Of a stretch of DNA of 64,000 nucleotides, positions 4,401-10,064 are shown piece after piece. The DNA is from Alphaproteobacteria bacterium (GTDB taxonomy: Bacteria; Pseudomonadota; Alphaproteobacteria; JANQMY01), in contig JANQPL010000016.1 in NCBI GenBank assembly GCA_028289425.1, positions 1-64,000 of the forward strand, given 5' to 3'. The stretch's first letter is position 1. Every line of letters starts with the position of its first letter. Made by a program: the position numbers and the translations under genes. Below the pieces are notes generated by a model that saw nothing but the letters and a program-made list of their open reading frames with translations, made no database searches and had not been told where the DNA came from.

Positions 4401-4577
4401 GGATTTCGGTGGCAGCGCGCTTAACTCACGTTGGTGACTCGGTGAGGGAGATTCGGCCTCACCAAGCGCGCAAAAAGAGTCACCGGGGCAGAAGAAGGAC
4501 GACCAATACGCAATTCAAATTTCTGCACTGTTACCGCATTCTTTGTGTAGTGTCTTGGGATCGGCGGCTTCTGCAAA

Positions 4578-5525
4578 TTAAAGCCCCAACAGTCGAAGTC
4601 CCGCATTTGCGAAAACAAGCAGTGCGACTCCTAGTATTACTTGTATAATTGCGAGAGCTATGCGTGAATTGTACATGTGCAGGAATGTTTCCCAGTACGA
4701 TTCAGCGATCTGCCTTTCAAGCCATTCGATTCCATCTGCATTACTTTCTCGTTCAAATGCTTCGCGAGTTTCACTCGACCGCATTTTTGCCCGGTGCGAA
4801 ACAGTATTCAGCATTCCGAGAACAAGGTAAGCAACGACCAACAGGAGCAAGAAGGCGAAGGCGGAAAACCAGACACTGCTATGGATTATATTTTCAAATG
4901 GACCAAGTTGGATCGCGTTATTTAGTGCTGCACTGAAGATTGTTATGAATAGCACAAATACGAAATCCAAATGAAAAACTTCACGGAAAAAAGCTGTTGA
5001 GAATGTCACGCGCTCTTCCTCGATCCATCGGTAATATATTGCCTTCCAAAAAGCACTCGCCAAGAAATGGACCAACAAGGACATTCCCAAAACGGGCACC
5101 AACAAAGTGCCAAACATATCACTTTGGGGAGAAAGTGCCCCTAATCCTACTGCAGCTGTCAATGCTATGACCGTGGCTAGAACTGGCTCTATGATCGCTC
5201 TAATTCGATAAAAATTAAAGACCGACAGGTCTTGTCCTACGTTGAAAAAGCTCCATGCTATTTGAGAATCGGCAAGGAAAAACAAAGCCAGCAGCGTAAT
5301 CAAATAACGCCAATGCGGATAAAGTGTAATCTCTACACCGAACAACTCCAGCACCAACGCCCGAAGGTACGGCTCTGCCCAGCCGAACATAAGTTGCAAA
5401 AATGCTTCCCACCACTCGAGAAGCACTTCCATTGGCTCTGTCAGCCCTAAATTAACCCCCTGGTTGAGCAGAGCAAACAAGGACAAAGCAGCCAATAGCA
5501 AAGACAGCTGTCTAAAAACCCGCAT
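4578..5525 (-). CDS. Multi-pass membrane protein of unknown function
   Basis: About 315 residues from ATG 5525 (an in-frame TTG at 5540 is less likely). Seven or eight hydrophobic segments alternate with short loops; a charged stretch near residue 255 (SHRAKMRSSETREAFERESNADG) precedes the last one. I do not recognise the family. The gene is clearly more A/T-rich than the core genes around it, like the HTH/CHAT run that starts 525 bases away on the other strand. It could be part of the same acquired island, or a membrane partner of the CHAT operon, but nothing in the sequence proves this. Confidence 0.7.
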   Translation of the reverse strand: MRVFRQLSLLLAALSLFALLNQGVNLGLTEPMEVLLEWWEAFLQLMFGWAEPYLRALVLELFGVEITLYPHWRYLITLLALFFLADSQIAWSFFNVGQDLSVFNFYRIRAIIEPVLATVIALTAAVGLGALSPQSDMFGTLLVPVLGMSLLVHFLASAFWKAIYYRWIEEERVTFSTAFFREVFHLDFVFVLFITIFSAALNNAIQLGPFENIIHSSVWFSAFAFLLLLVVAYLVLGMLNTVSHRAKMRSSETREAFERESNADGIEWLERQIAESYWETFLHMYNSRIALAIIQVILGVALLVFANAGLRLLGL

Positions 5526-6049
5526 CGCGTCGACCCACAACTTTTTCGAAAAAAGTTACCACCGACAACACGATTGCTTATGTGATGCTAGTCACTAAGT
5601 ACGCAGTATTAGTCATCGTGCTATTGTTAACTAAAATGCGTCGCCGATTACGGTGACAGCCCACAAAACTGCTGAACTCAATTAGACGATTGCATGGCAT
5701 GTCGGCGAAAGATCCAATTAAGTACTGTCACCTTAATCCTTCTGCCTAGGTTCAAGAATGACGGGGTGAACGCTTGGCCCAACCTTCCCGGCGACAAAAC
5801 CGACCGCCAGAAAATGCACACGGCGCTTCGGCGAAAACGCGTAAGTGATTCGTAAATTGACGCGTCCTATTCGAGCAGCTTACTCACCCCGCCGAATTTA
5901 AAGAGCGTTTTTACCATTATTTACAGTGGCTTAGAAATTTGACTTTGACTCTTTGACATTAGTCTCCTTACCCTCTGAATAATCTGCGACTCGAAATTCA
6001 AGTTTTCTGCGGTTTTCTCCGGAAGAGTTATGCAAGGAAGGGCACAGAC
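5526..6049. other. A/T-rich divergent intergenic region upstream of the HTH/CHAT run
   Basis: About 520 bases without a convincing gene. It contains an A/T palindrome at 5539-5557 (AACTTTTT, CG, AAAAAAGTT) just upstream of the membrane protein gene, a small element with inverted ends at 5648-5737, and A/T-rich sequence before ATG 6050 where the promoter of the run should lie. No clear -35/-10 pair was assigned. Confidence 0.6.
5648..5737. repeat. Small inverted-end element (GGTGACAG family)
   Basis: The left end reads ATTACGGTGACAG (5648-5660) and the right end CTGTCACCTTAAT (5725-5737), near-perfect inverted copies enclosing about 65 bases without coding potential. The ends share GGTGACAG with elements at 8351, 15448, 18616 and 19839. 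The size and inverted ends suit a MITE or REP-type element. Confidence 0.5.
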
Positions 6050-6379
6050 ATGAACACAAATGAGTCATTGCTCCGAGCGATTTTGGCAATGACGGCCAGG
6101 CAGGCTTATGCACCGGCTGACTTGGCCAAGATAGTCTCGCCCAACGCGGGCGGCCAAAAGCAGCTACTAGCTTACAACCTTTGCGATGGACAAACGCCTC
6201 AGACTGAAGTTGGGAAAAAGGCAAAGCTCGACAAGGGCAACCTTAGCCGTTCCATATCCAGGTGGATAGAAGCTGGAATTATGTTTCGCATCGGGACCGA
6301 TCAGAATCCCATGCATCTGTATCCGCTGCCCAAGGAATATTTGAAATCGAACCCAAGCAAAAAGAAGACAGACGCATGA
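6050..6379 (+). CDS. Small winged-helix/HTH protein, first gene of the CHAT operon
   Basis: 109 residues. The middle and C-terminal part (GKKAKLDKGNLSRSISRWIEAGIMFRI) looks like a MarR-style winged helix with recognition helix NLSRSISRW, followed by a basic tail ending KKKTDA. The gene starts a run of six genes with tiny overlaps; its stop overlaps the next ATG (ATGA at 6376-6379). The likely role is DNA binding or an adaptor to the CHAT protein. The family is not recognised beyond its fold. Confidence 0.7.
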   Translation: MNTNESLLRAILAMTARQAYAPADLAKIVSPNAGGQKQLLAYNLCDGQTPQTEVGKKAKLDKGNLSRSISRWIEAGIMFRIGTDQNPMHLYPLPKEYLKSNPSKKKTDA

Positions 6380-6603
6380 GCGATGAACTTTCTGAAAAAC
6401 TCGACATATTGATCAAGCTGCAAGCGGCAGCGCTCACCGCTTCTTTTGATTCCGTCAAGGACAAGATTTTGTTCTTAAACAAAGCTGGCCTGCGCCCAAA
6501 GCTGATCGCGGAAATTGTTGGCACAAGCCCCAACCACGTTAACGTGACGCTTTCAAAGGAAAGAAAGCCATCGAAAGGAAAAAAGAAAGCGACTGAAGAA
6601 TGA
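6376..6603 (+). CDS. Small HTH protein, second gene of the CHAT operon
   Basis: 75 residues from the ATG that overlaps the upstream stop; longer in-frame starts from 6262 would lie inside the first gene. The N-terminal part SEKLDILIKLQAAAL is an amphipathic helix like those of the next three genes. Residues 38-60 (AGLRPKLIAEIVGTSPNHVNVTLSK) form a helix-turn-helix in the sigma-region-4 style. The tail is strongly basic (KERKPSKGKKK). It is a divergent relative of the three following small genes, without their RM-PKG signature. Confidence 0.7.
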   Translation: MSDELSEKLDILIKLQAAALTASFDSVKDKILFLNKAGLRPKLIAEIVGTSPNHVNVTLSKERKPSKGKKKATEE

Positions 6604-6794
6604 CAAATAACGATAGCGACATCTTAAAAGAGCTTTCCGCGATCAAGAAACTTTTGATCCTGGCGCTCGCTAACTCAGGCATGACGCAAGCTCAGATTGC
6701 TGCGGCGCTTGATGTTGATCGCACGAATGTCAGTCGGATGTTTCCGAAGGGCACATCTGCCGCGCTGAAAAGTAAAGGCGGAAAAGATGACTAA
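6600..6794 (+). CDS. Small HTH protein, paralogue A
   Basis: 64 residues: a leading helix (ILKELSAIKKLLILALANSG) and an HTH (MTQAQIAAALDVDRTNVSRMFPKG). It starts in an ATGA overlap with the previous gene. The same layout and the ending SRM(F/L)PKG recur in the next two genes, so these are tandem duplicates that have diverged. Such a short protein probably works as a dimer or within a larger assembly. Confidence 0.75.
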   Translation: MTNNDSDILKELSAIKKLLILALANSGMTQAQIAAALDVDRTNVSRMFPKGTSAALKSKGGKDD

Positions 6795-7002
6795 TGACGA
6801 TTCAAAGGCGCTTATAGAGGAAATGCAGGGTGTAAAGAAGCTGCTCATGCTTCAATTGTTGGCGATGGGATACAAACAAAAACACATCGCGGCTGCTCTT
6901 GGGGTGAGTGATGCCACGCTTAGCCGAATGCTGCCTAAAGGTATATCCAAGGATGTTCCCAAGAAACCTAATATGGGTTCAGCAGAGAATGCGGATTTGT
7001 AG
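6787..7002 (+). CDS. Small HTH protein, paralogue B
   Basis: 71 residues, with helix LIEEMQGVKKLLMLQLLAMG followed by HTH YKQKHIAAALGVSDATLSRMLPKG and a 23-residue polar tail. It overlaps paralogue A by 8 bases and ends directly before the next ATG. It shares the position of every core HTH residue with paralogues A and C, but its recognition helix differs (SDATLSR against DRTNVSR and SQPTVSR), which would suit different DNA targets. Confidence 0.75.
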   Translation: MTNDDSKALIEEMQGVKKLLMLQLLAMGYKQKHIAAALGVSDATLSRMLPKGISKDVPKKPNMGSAENADL

Positions 7003-7191
7003 ATGACGAACGATCAGGCCGACCAAATCCTCAAAGAGCTTGAAATGCTCCGGAAGCTGAAAATGCTTGAGCTTGCTGAAAAAGGGTTTTCGCAAGCACT
7101 CTTGGCGCAAGCTTTAGGAGTGAGCCAACCGACTGTCAGCCGGATGTTCCCAAAGGGATCCGCCAAGAGTAAGGCCGCCCCCGATGAATAA
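7003..7191 (+). CDS. Small HTH protein, paralogue C
   Basis: 62 residues: helix ILKELEMLRKLKMLELAEKG and HTH FSQALLAQALGVSQPTVSRMFPKG. The ATG follows the previous TAG with no spacer. Its last codons overlap the start of the CHAT gene by 8 bases. It is the third clear copy of the tandem family. Confidence 0.75.
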   Translation: MTNDQADQILKELEMLRKLKMLELAEKGFSQALLAQALGVSQPTVSRMFPKGSAKSKAAPDE

Positions 7192-8224
7192 AAGAACATC
7201 CATTGTCAATATTTCCGGCGACCATGAGGAAACACTAATTCAGTTGGCCCGGCATCTAGGTACTAGCCAGATTCGTCGCAAGATTTTTGACACGGTTTAT
7301 GGGCCCGGTACTAGGCCTCGATCTAAAAGACAGATCATGGAGAAAGCCGGAATTTCTGATACAGGCACAAAAGCACAGCAGGTGCAGAATGAATTAGACC
7401 ACCTTTCGAAGCACCATCTCATTGTTAAGTCTGAAAACAATGGTGTGGTTGCAGACGGCAGCAGAAATCTCTACGGGAAGGATGAATCGGTCAGGGCAAA
7501 TAGAAAAAAAATTATCAGACTTGCTGACAACCCAAAGGCCGCTGACCGGATTCCTACGAAGCGCCGACCCGCGTTGGAAGGCGTAGCTCCTATCCAACGA
7601 GTTACAAAACGCGATTTGAAGAAGAAAAAGCACCTAAATGTTCTGTATCTTGCGTCAAATCCCGATCCGCAATGCTCTTTGCGCATCGATGCGGAGATTA
7701 GGTTGGTTCAACAAGCGATCAGAGGAACTGTCTACCGTGACAGCATCACAGTGCAGTACAGGCCGGCAGCTAATTTGGATTCGCTACTCGAGGGGCTAAA
7801 TGACCATCGTCCCCAAATCGTACATTTTTCCGGTCATGGCAACGAAACCGAAATTGCAACAGATAGCGGTGGAGTGGAGGATCCGGCGGTCCAATCGCTC
7901 TCGTTTGATTTGTTAGCAAAGGCATTGTCTGCAACCGACAGCCCCCCCGAAATAGTTGTGCTGAATTCATGCAAGAGTTCAGCTGCAAAGAAACACCTTC
8001 TGCCAGTTGCGAAGGTCATCATTACCATGCGGGAATCAATTTCCGATGTGGCTGCGGCTGCTTTCGCCCCCCGCTTTTACGCAGCCTTGGCAAGTGGGCA
8101 ACCGGTGCAGAAAGCCTTTGCGCAGGGTCAGGTGGCCGTTGCAGCCGCCTCTATCAGCGAAGCAAACACACCTGAACTTCATTGCGCAGCCGGTATAAAC
8201 CCAGCCAAGGTCATCCTCACGTAG
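7184..8224 (+). CDS. CHAT-domain (caspase-like) protease with N-terminal winged helix
   Basis: 346 residues. Residues 15-95 look like a winged helix (RRKIFDTVYGP, RSKRQIMEKAGISDTGTK, VQNELDHLSKHHLIV). A basic linker (residues 125-150) leads to a CHAT domain from about 150: LNVLYLASNPDP, then IVHFSGHGNE with the expected catalytic His at 218, then VVLNSCKSS with the expected nucleophile Cys at 263, and the late AFAQGQ helix seen in CHAT proteins. Both catalytic positions are intact, so it is probably an active cysteine protease. CHAT proteases act as effectors in several bacterial immune and cell-death systems. It is the last gene of the overlapping run, so dose and activity are probably tied to the small HTH proteins. 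Confidence 0.85.
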   Translation: MNKRTSIVNISGDHEETLIQLARHLGTSQIRRKIFDTVYGPGTRPRSKRQIMEKAGISDTGTKAQQVQNELDHLSKHHLIVKSENNGVVADGSRNLYGKDESVRANRKKIIRLADNPKAADRIPTKRRPALEGVAPIQRVTKRDLKKKKHLNVLYLASNPDPQCSLRIDAEIRLVQQAIRGTVYRDSITVQYRPAANLDSLLEGLNDHRPQIVHFSGHGNETEIATDSGGVEDPAVQSLSFDLLAKALSATDSPPEIVVLNSCKSSAAKKHLLPVAKVIITMRESISDVAAAAFAPRFYAALASGQPVQKAFAQGQVAVAAASISEANTPELHCAAGINPAKVILT

Positions 8225-8480
8225 CGCTAGTAAGCCTAGGGAGGCTCCGCGCTTTGGATTGTTGCCCAGCGAAAGAACTGATCGGGATTGAACACCGGCT
8301 CGAACGCTTTTTGCTCGTCTCCAAGGACGAAACCTTGGATCACGGTGAGATTACGGTGACAGTGCACTTAATCAACAGGTTGGGTTGAGCTGTTTCTGAA
8401 CGCGATGGTATGTCGGGCGCGTGTCGTCCTCCAACGCTAGCCTGTATTTGTGGATGTGCTTCCCGAGAGATGGGTTGCAC
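8225..8480. other. Intergenic between the CHAT gene and the IS element
   Basis: 256 bases with no supported gene. It contains TTACGGTGACAGTGCACTTAAT-type repeat sequence at 8351-8372. No terminator hairpin with a T run was found after the CHAT stop. Confidence 0.5.
8351..8372. repeat. GGTGACAGTGCA(C/T)TTAAT motif
   Basis: A single copy of a motif also present at 18616 and 19839 and, inverted, at 15448. No inverted partner is clear nearby, so this may be a fragment of a larger element cut by the IS insertion. Confidence 0.45.
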
Positions 8481-9720
8481 TTTATACCGGAGACATAGGT
8501 AACACTTTTCGGCCTTTGCGAGGAGAGCAAGGTGCCGTGGAAGGAGTGTTGTCCTATGGACGAGAAGCTGAAGTTCGTTGCCCGCCTGCTCGACGGTGAG
8601 AAGATGGCGGGGCTCTGCCGGGAGTTCGGGATCTCCCGCAAGACCGGCTACAAGATCTTCGCCCGCTACAAGGATTGCGGGCTCGAGGGCCTCACCGACC
8701 GCTCGCGCCGGCCCTACCGGCACGCCAACCAATTGCCCTTCCAGATCGAACAGCTGATCATTCATCTCAAGCAGGACAAGCCAAGCTGGGGGGCACCGAA
8801 GATCCGGGAGCGACTACGTCGTCTCTATCCAGACGTCCAGACCCCCGCCATCAGCACCGTTCATGCGGTGCTCGACCGACATGGCTTGGTCAAGCGTCGG
8901 AAGCGCCGTCGCTACAAGGCGCAAGGCACGAGCCTGTCCAAGCCAAAAGCCCCCAATGATCTGTGGTGCACCGATTACAAAGGCGAGTTCATGCTGGCGG
9001 ACAGGCGCTATTGCTATCCGCTGACCATCTCGGATTTTGCCAGCCGCTATCTGATTGCCTGTGATGCCCTTGCCAGCACCAAGGAAGCCTATGCATTCAC
9101 TGTGTTTGAGCGCATCTTCAAGGAATTCGGCTTGCCCCAGGCCATCCGCACCGACAATGGCATTCCCTTTGCCAGCCCCAATGCGCTCTTCGGCTTGAGC
9201 AAACTCTCGGTCTGGTGGCTCAGGCTTGGCATCGACATCGAACGCATCAAGCCAGGCCATCCGCAACAGAACGGTCGACACGAGCGCATGCACCTCACTC
9301 TCAAGAAGGAAGCCACACGGCCGGCGTCGCCAAACTTCCTTCAGCAACAAGCCCGCTTCGACGATTTTATCGAGGAATACAACAAAGAACGGCCCCACCA
9401 GGCCCTCAATATGGACACTCCCGCCGAGCGCTACACACCCTCAACACGGCCCTATCGTGGACTGCCCGATCTCGACTATCCGTTCCATGACAAAACCATC
9501 ATCGTCACCAACTGCGGACGCATCTGTATGGGACGGCGCAAGATAAACCTGACAACTGTCCTTGCCGGTCAAAAGGTCGGCGTCAAACAGGTCGACGACC
9601 AAATCTGGCTCGTCAGTTTTATGCAACATGATCTGGGATATTTTGATGATCAAACCGGAAGACTCGAACCCATAGCCAACCCATTCGGTCCAAATGTGTT
9701 ACCCATGTCTCCGGTATAAA
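8481..9720 (+). mobile_element. IS481-family insertion sequence
   Basis: A 1240-base element bounded by 25-base inverted repeats at 8481-8505 and 9696-9720 that differ at a single position (both open TTTATACCGGAGACAT when read inwards). It holds one full-length transposase gene, so it may still be active. No target-site duplication was convincing. It lies between the CHAT operon and tRNA-Arg. Confidence 0.85.
8532..9719 (+). CDS. IS481-family DDE transposase
   Basis: 395 residues. The N-terminal HTH (AGLCREFGISRKTGYKIFARY) is followed by an integrase core with the DDE triad: DLWCTDYKGEF (Asp), IRTDNGIPF (Asp) and NGRHERMHLTLKKEA (Glu). GTG 8532 is chosen because AGGAG lies just upstream and MPWKE is a common opening in this group; ATG 8556 is an alternative. 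The stop lies within the right inverted repeat, as is usual for compact elements. No frameshift is seen. Confidence 0.9.
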   Translation: MPWKECCPMDEKLKFVARLLDGEKMAGLCREFGISRKTGYKIFARYKDCGLEGLTDRSRRPYRHANQLPFQIEQLIIHLKQDKPSWGAPKIRERLRRLYPDVQTPAISTVHAVLDRHGLVKRRKRRRYKAQGTSLSKPKAPNDLWCTDYKGEFMLADRRYCYPLTISDFASRYLIACDALASTKEAYAFTVFERIFKEFGLPQAIRTDNGIPFASPNALFGLSKLSVWWLRLGIDIERIKPGHPQQNGRHERMHLTLKKEATRPASPNFLQQQARFDDFIEEYNKERPHQALNMDTPAERYTPSTRPYRGLPDLDYPFHDKTIIVTNCGRICMGRRKINLTTVLAGQKVGVKQVDDQIWLVSFMQHDLGYFDDQTGRLEPIANPFGPNVLPMSPV

Positions 9721-9721
9721 C

Positions 9722-9742
9722 TGTCACCTATGTGTCCGGTAT
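9722..9742. repeat. Extra IS-end-like sequence outside the right inverted repeat
   Basis: TGTCACCTATGTGTCCGGTAT directly adjoins the right end of the IS and matches the IS end in about 17 of 21 positions. It looks like the end of a second, related element of which nothing else remains here. Confidence 0.5.
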
Positions 9743-9833: not shown

Positions 9834-10064
9834 CAAAAACGCATTTGGGGAACTCTCAAGCCCCGATATTTTTTCTGTCGCGTTTCCGGACGGCGAACCG
9901 CCAAAATCCATTTTTGGCACTTCGCCTGGAAACGCTAAAAGAGCGGCGCAACCTACCGAAAATCCACCCCACTGGCAAATGCGGCGCGATACCCCCTTGC
10001 CCATGCCTGGCAAGCGCCTCAGAGTCGGTGCGACGGCTTCGGCGCAGACTGCAGGGGACAATAC
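9834..10064. other. Intergenic with nested inverted repeat
   Basis: No gene. At 9880-9935 an imperfect inverted repeat (GCGTTTCC and GGAAACGC ends) encloses a smaller one (CCAAAA, TCCA, TTTTTGG). It lies upstream of tRNA-Arg and of the permease gene, so it could be a cruciform or a regulatory hairpin; its role is unknown. Confidence 0.4.

What the first reader, a model, noticed from the sequence alone, without database searches (positions are those of the whole stretch)
6050..8224. Array of five tiny HTH genes ending in a CHAT protease: candidate undescribed conflict or stress system
Six genes overlap or abut by 0-8 bases. The first five are 62-109-residue DNA-binding-type proteins; the sixth has a winged helix joined to a CHAT domain with intact His218 (SGHG) and Cys263 (LNSCKS). 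Three of the small proteins are clear tandem paralogues sharing SRM(F/L)PKG but with different recognition helices, and a fourth is a distant relative. CHAT proteases are known effectors in bacterial immunity, but I know no described system with an HTH array of this kind. A workable hypothesis is that the HTH proteins recognise invading DNA, or hold the protease in check, and that their loss or engagement frees it.
Basis: partly seen in the sequence, partly recalled or inferred. Interest (0 to 1): 0.93.

Follow-up and report, generated by a model that had tools for sequence, protein, structure and literature searches.

The report
HTH array gating a caspase-like protease
A compact, apparently mobile set of six bacterial genes makes five tiny DNA-binding proteins plus a DNA-binding protease related to caspases; it recurs in the same gene order in unrelated bacteria, and in one of them the protease part is replaced by a different domain, which points to an undescribed self-regulated defence- or toxin-like module.

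Summary
The same array, in the same order, was found in eleven other genomes: five Bradyrhizobium, other alphaproteobacteria, Woeseiaceae, a Nitrospinaceae MAG and others. All small genes are under protein-level selection. Where the contig reaches the last gene, it has the same winged helix, fused to CHAT (window and nine loci) or, in one alphaproteobacterium, to an unrelated domain with a KDWGGEQxD...LKGP motif (nuclease-like by motif only). So the array is a conserved module and the effector was swapped at least once. CHAT domains at large occur without it. Against a varied invader sensor, each HTH keeps its own recognition helix across loci (67-75% identity within groups, 20% between paralogues). 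Six loci share an upstream element: TTASY-N12-TGAATA, with an inverted TATTCR half-site 106-109 bases further upstream. Best reading: the HTH proteins sit on their own control region, hold operon and effector in check, and release it when disturbed. Neighbours are mostly housekeeping genes; spread is patchy (5 of 272 Bradyrhizobium). No named system matched. Binding, trigger and outcome are untested.

The parts
6050..6379 (+). gene 1: 109-aa winged-helix-like protein
   Evidence: conserved in nine of eleven other loci, 50-75% identical in A3; weak MarR-type matches only; absent from 386 other genomes of the class
6376..6603 (+). gene 2: 75-aa HTH protein of a separate family
   Evidence: present in all eleven other loci, 40-81% identical in A4
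6600..6794 (+). gene 3: 64-aa HTH protein, recognition helix DRTNVSR
   Evidence: orthologues in L042, L043, L049 and probably L081
6787..7002 (+). gene 4: 71-aa HTH protein, recognition helix SDATLSR
   Evidence: orthologues in all other loci, truncated at the start in L047
7003..7191 (+). gene 5: 62-aa HTH protein, recognition helix SQPTVSR
   Evidence: orthologues in all other loci
7184..7582 (+). gene 6, N-terminal winged helix (residues 1-133)
   Evidence: AlphaFold2 model; conserved in all loci whose contig reaches it, including L081 with another effector
7583..8224 (+). gene 6, CHAT protease domain with His218 and Cys263
   Evidence: Pfam PF12770, PDB 8tl0 by sequence and fold, dyad invariant
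5959..5981 (+). conserved upstream element TTAGT-N12-TGAATA
   Evidence: same spacing in six loci; in held DNA found only upstream of this operon
5868..5873 (-). second, inverted half-site TATTCG, 108 bases upstream of TGAATA
   Evidence: TATTCA or a one-mismatch form at 106-109 bases in six of six loci; at most four of six in 3000 shuffles

Best explanation
A self-contained, horizontally moving effector module with its own HTH gate. The small HTH proteins (genes 1-5) together bind a conserved two-part site upstream of their operon and keep its output low, and they hold the effector (gene 6) through its own winged helix, so that the CHAT protease stays inactive. An event that removes or rearranges the HTH proteins or their DNA (phage takeover, DNA damage, an incoming competitor) frees and raises the effector, which then cuts proteins and stops growth or infection. 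Shown: the conserved unit, intact dyad, conserved recognition helices, shared upstream element, patchy spread, one effector swap. Inferred: binding of the element by these proteins, repression, docking, trigger and outcome.
For: Same array in eleven other genomes. Every array whose contig reaches the last gene has the same winged helix in front of the effector. Effector replaced in L081 while array and winged helix are kept. Recognition helices conserved within, not between, paralogue groups. Two-part inverted element upstream in six loci, spaced near ten helical turns. Accessory spread: 5 of 272 Bradyrhizobium; window 4424-8451 not found in the congener. Precedent for gated CHAT: Csx29 cuts Csx30 only with target RNA (PMC10028731).
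Against: No HTH-DNA or HTH-effector interaction was tested. The element is not seen in L043, L045, L048, L049. Neighbours are mostly housekeeping genes. No phage, plasmid or IMG/VR copy of the array was found. Only one effector swap is seen.
Confidence: 0.42

Rival explanations
1. Direct DNA alarm: the HTH proteins assemble on one fixed composite sequence in invading DNA and gather several copies of the effector there, which switches on the CHAT protease by proximity.
For: All six proteins carry DNA-binding domains; closest solved CHAT relative works as a filament (8tl0); effector swap.
Against: Recognition helices do not vary between loci; the only conserved site seen lies upstream of the operon itself; no defence-island context.
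Confidence: 0.22
2. Regulatory proteolysis: the CHAT protease cuts one or more of the small HTH proteins to change transcription, as Csx29 does indirectly for CASP-sigma.
For: CHAT and Lon proteases of type III CRISPR systems release sigma factors (PMC10028731; PMC11417357); genes 3-5 weakly match sigma-70 region 4 models.
Against: In L081 the array is kept with an effector that is not CHAT; the shared element is not found elsewhere in the held DNA, so no regulon is seen.
Confidence: 0.13
3. Plain addiction (toxin-antitoxin) module that maintains itself or a mobile element, with no role against invaders.
For: Overlapping small HTH genes before an effector, upstream inverted sites, patchy spread, flanking repeat.
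Against: Three to five different HTH proteins with separately conserved helices are more than an antitoxin needs; no plasmid copies found.
Confidence: 0.18

Closest known systems
SAVED-CHAT protease (PDB 8tl0)
   Same: closest solved relative of the CHAT domain by sequence and fold
   Different: no SAVED domain here; N-terminus is a winged helix and the partners are HTH proteins; no CRISPR genes seen nearby
Craspase TPR-CHAT (Csx29) with Csx30 and CASP-sigma
   Same: CHAT protease under tight control and linked to a transcription factor (PMC10028731)
   Different: no TPR, Cas7-11 or Csx30 relative found; here the protease itself carries a DNA-binding domain
Stand-alone coiled-coil CHAT proteins on plasmids (for example Agrobacterium pTi and pAt)
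   Same: CHAT domain about 30-40% identical
   Different: no winged helix aligned with the query's and no HTH array
Type II toxin-antitoxin operons with HTH antitoxins
   Same: small HTH genes overlapping an effector gene, inverted sites upstream
   Different: three to five different HTH proteins, and an effector that is itself DNA-binding

Membership tests
CHAT peptidases (PF12770) | profile match above the curated cut-off | tested here: met
   52.4 bits against 24
CHAT peptidases (PF12770) | catalytic His and Cys conserved | tested here: met
   H218 and C263 invariant in eight sequences
CHAT peptidases (PF12770) | peptidase activity | not testable with these tools
   needs purified protein
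SAVED-CHAT | SAVED domain in front of CHAT | tested here: not met
   PADLOC SAVED_CHAT model matched only residues 194-341, its CHAT end; the N-terminus is modelled as a winged helix
Craspase (type III-E) | TPR-CHAT encoded beside Cas7-11 | tested here: not met
   no TPR match in gene 6; no Cas7-11 among neighbour matches shown
MADS defence system | mad1 with further mad genes in one operon | tested here: not met
   gene 4 matches mad1 only at E 0.0024 and no other operon gene matches a mad model; mad2, mad3 and mad8 models match a few neighbour proteins outside the operon
PDC-M05 (PADLOC candidate) | full-length PDC-M05A protein | tested here: not met
   gene 1 matches 37 residues of a 201-position model
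Type II toxin-antitoxin | effector toxic alone and neutralised by the small proteins | not testable with these tools
   needs expression tests

The most novel reading that the evidence does not exclude
A bacterial caspase-like protease switched by DNA through a fixed array of different HTH proteins that read one composite sequence, with the effector exchangeable for a nuclease: a sequence-specific, protein-only DNA alarm not described before.
Probability: 0.2. Interest if true: 0.92.

Novelty: new variant of a known kind. Interest (0 to 1): 0.74.

Why it matters
The bacterial CHAT effectors studied best are triggered by CRISPR complexes or by cyclic nucleotides. A conserved, mobile operon in which the effector and all its partners carry DNA-binding domains would show another way to gate such an effector. 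The unit is about 2.2 kb, has clear catalytic residues and a predicted control element, so it can be tested directly in laboratory strains.

Tried and rejected
First impression that the C-terminal domain varied in most loci was my own frame error; a correct query showed CHAT in all but L081. RNA structure upstream: no consensus fold, no Rfam match. Defence-island context: PADLOC and Pfam on 80 neighbour proteins gave mostly methyltransferase, ATPase and housekeeping matches; the greedy ORF calls include some antisense frames and only the 25 commonest families are listed, so this is not exhaustive. Shared flanking repeat in other loci: the window's repeat is not there. Phage or plasmid carriage: none found with the small genes or the winged-helix part, but pattern scans find close relatives only. 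Fold search with the gene 3 model gave only generic HTH matches, E 0.7 or worse. One pattern search had a wrong spacer length and says nothing.

Full report
Observation. The six ORFs are present at the stated coordinates, overlap by 0-8 bases and have the stated lengths. Gene 6 carries a CHAT domain (PF12770, E 7e-14). An AlphaFold2 model on eight homologues (mean pLDDT 79.5) shows a winged helix at about 14-100, a poorly predicted linker at about 131-146 and a caspase-like domain after it. The closest solved structure, by sequence (E 7.6e-24) and by fold, is 8tl0, an activated SAVED-CHAT filament. His218 and Cys263 are invariant in the eight full-length CHAT sequences.

Is the run a unit? Ninety-six relatives and 387 genomes of the class held no other array. 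A scan of one genome for each of 84,980 species with the alignment of genes 3-5 found eight loci: Woeseiaceae, an alphaproteobacterial MAG, three Bradyrhizobium, a Nitrospinaceae MAG, a proteobacterial MAG and Hyphomicrobium. In all of them other small genes of the array lie in the same order, and where the contig continues the last gene is the same winged-helix-CHAT protein (in L042 the contig ends after 32 residues of it, 91% identical). Searches with gene 2 alone gave two more Bradyrhizobium loci (L062, L063; 5 of 272 genomes in the genus) and one in another genome of the window's class (L081), again with the whole array. Gene 2 was found nowhere else in the eight genomes, apart from a gene-2-like ORF just upstream of the array in L044. 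Gene 1 was not found in L044 and L048; gene 3 not in L044-L048, L062 and L063; in L047 the start of gene 4 is damaged. The first search by HTH proteins favours loci with arrays, so the statement that this winged-helix-CHAT protein always has an array rests on a biased sample; the gene 2 searches remove only part of that bias.

Selection. Median pN/pS is 0.34, 0.26, 0.38, 0.37, 0.29 and 0.42 for genes 1-6, with pS near saturation. The small genes are proteins under constraint, at least as conserved as the effector.

Recognition helices. In the first five residues of the recognition helix, identity within the groups of genes 3, 4 and 5 is 67%, 75% and 68%, against 20% between groups; for the rest of the HTH it is 62-68% against 45%. 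Each protein therefore keeps its own specificity across distant genomes. That fits fixed DNA or protein targets and does not fit a diversifying sensor of varied invaders.

Upstream element. Six loci (window, L042, L044, L046, L062, L063) share TTASY-N12-TGAATA, at 78-91 bases before gene 1 in five of them and 182 bases before gene 2 in L044, which lacks gene 1. The pattern occurs nowhere else in 467 kb of held DNA and once in the window, where 0.01 is expected. It was read off these sequences, so those numbers overstate its significance; in an unbiased word count TGAATA was in six of ten upstream regions, a value that one of 60 shuffled sets also reached, and the best spaced word pair was not significant. 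The stronger support is the second half-site: the reverse complement of TGAATA, with at most one mismatch, lies 106-109 bases upstream in six of six loci, against at most four of six in 3000 shuffles. Four of the six loci are Bradyrhizobium and related by descent; the other two are the window and a Woeseiaceae MAG. The spacing is about ten helical turns. RNA folding and Rfam gave nothing. Binding by the operon's own HTH proteins is an inference.

Effector exchange. In L081 the array (38-52% identical to the window's) and the winged helix (30% over 131 residues, E 2e-14) are kept, but the rest of the last protein does not match CHAT. It has no Pfam, PADLOC, NCBIfam or PHROGs match of note, resembles hypothetical proteins of Gordonia and Rhodococcus plasmids and shares KDWGGEQxD, KGP and NGDQ with them. 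A PD-(D/E)xK-type nuclease is my guess from the motif; no structure was run. One exchange among eleven readable loci is modest evidence, yet it separates the array from protein cutting and is typical of conflict systems (general knowledge).

Mobility and surroundings. Window 4424-8451 has no match in the congener G001, whose matches resume at the IS481-type transposase and, on one contig, at tRNA-Arg and the genes beyond it. G001 is in 630 contigs, so the empty site itself was not read. A 19-nt direct repeat flanks the operon, and its 13-base core occurs only twice in the genome. Other loci lie beside ordinary genes (for example a GMP synthase and YidC), and PADLOC and Pfam over 80 neighbours showed no defence island.

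CHAT without the array. Plasmid CHAT proteins differ at the N-terminus and have no HTH array. G346 (L015, L075) has a CHAT domain 57-61% identical to the window's without array and without a recognisable winged helix; it may be a relic.

Mechanism. I favour a self-gated effector module: the HTH proteins sit on the conserved upstream sites, limit expression and hold the effector by its winged helix; disturbance frees it. Rivals are activation on foreign DNA, regulatory proteolysis as in Csx29-Csx30-CASP-sigma (PMC10028731) or CalpL/T/S (PMC11417357), and plain addiction. None was tested experimentally. Literature searches found no description of such an operon; the library is open-access only, so absence is weak evidence.

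Noticed in passing
window 8462-9739: IS481-type transposase gene with 53-nt imperfect inverted repeats; related copies in several contigs of the congener.
   Followed up: partly
window 5646-5664, 5725-5738 and 8349-8367: Direct repeat GATTACGGTGACAG on both sides of the operon, with an inverted partial copy; the 13-base core is found only twice in the genome.
   Followed up: partly
window 4578-5540 (-): 320-aa probable membrane protein beside the operon, no Pfam or PADLOC match, region not found in the congener.
   Followed up: no
window 9869-9953 and 1-74: Short stretches that match many contigs of the congener, probably dispersed repeats.
   Followed up: no
L081:6998-7918 (-): Unnamed effector domain with KDWGGEQxD, KGP and NGDQ, also in Gordonia and Rhodococcus plasmid proteins.
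   Followed up: partly
L044 7015-7224 and 9233-9502: Two further small HTH-like ORFs next to a Bradyrhizobium array.
   Followed up: no
L075 6611-7324 (-), also L015: CHAT gene close to the window's but without array or winged helix, perhaps a frameshifted relic.
   Followed up: partly
L002 and L005: Agrobacterium pTi and Sphingomonas plasmid clusters with CHAT, caspase, TIR and peptidase genes side by side.
   Followed up: no
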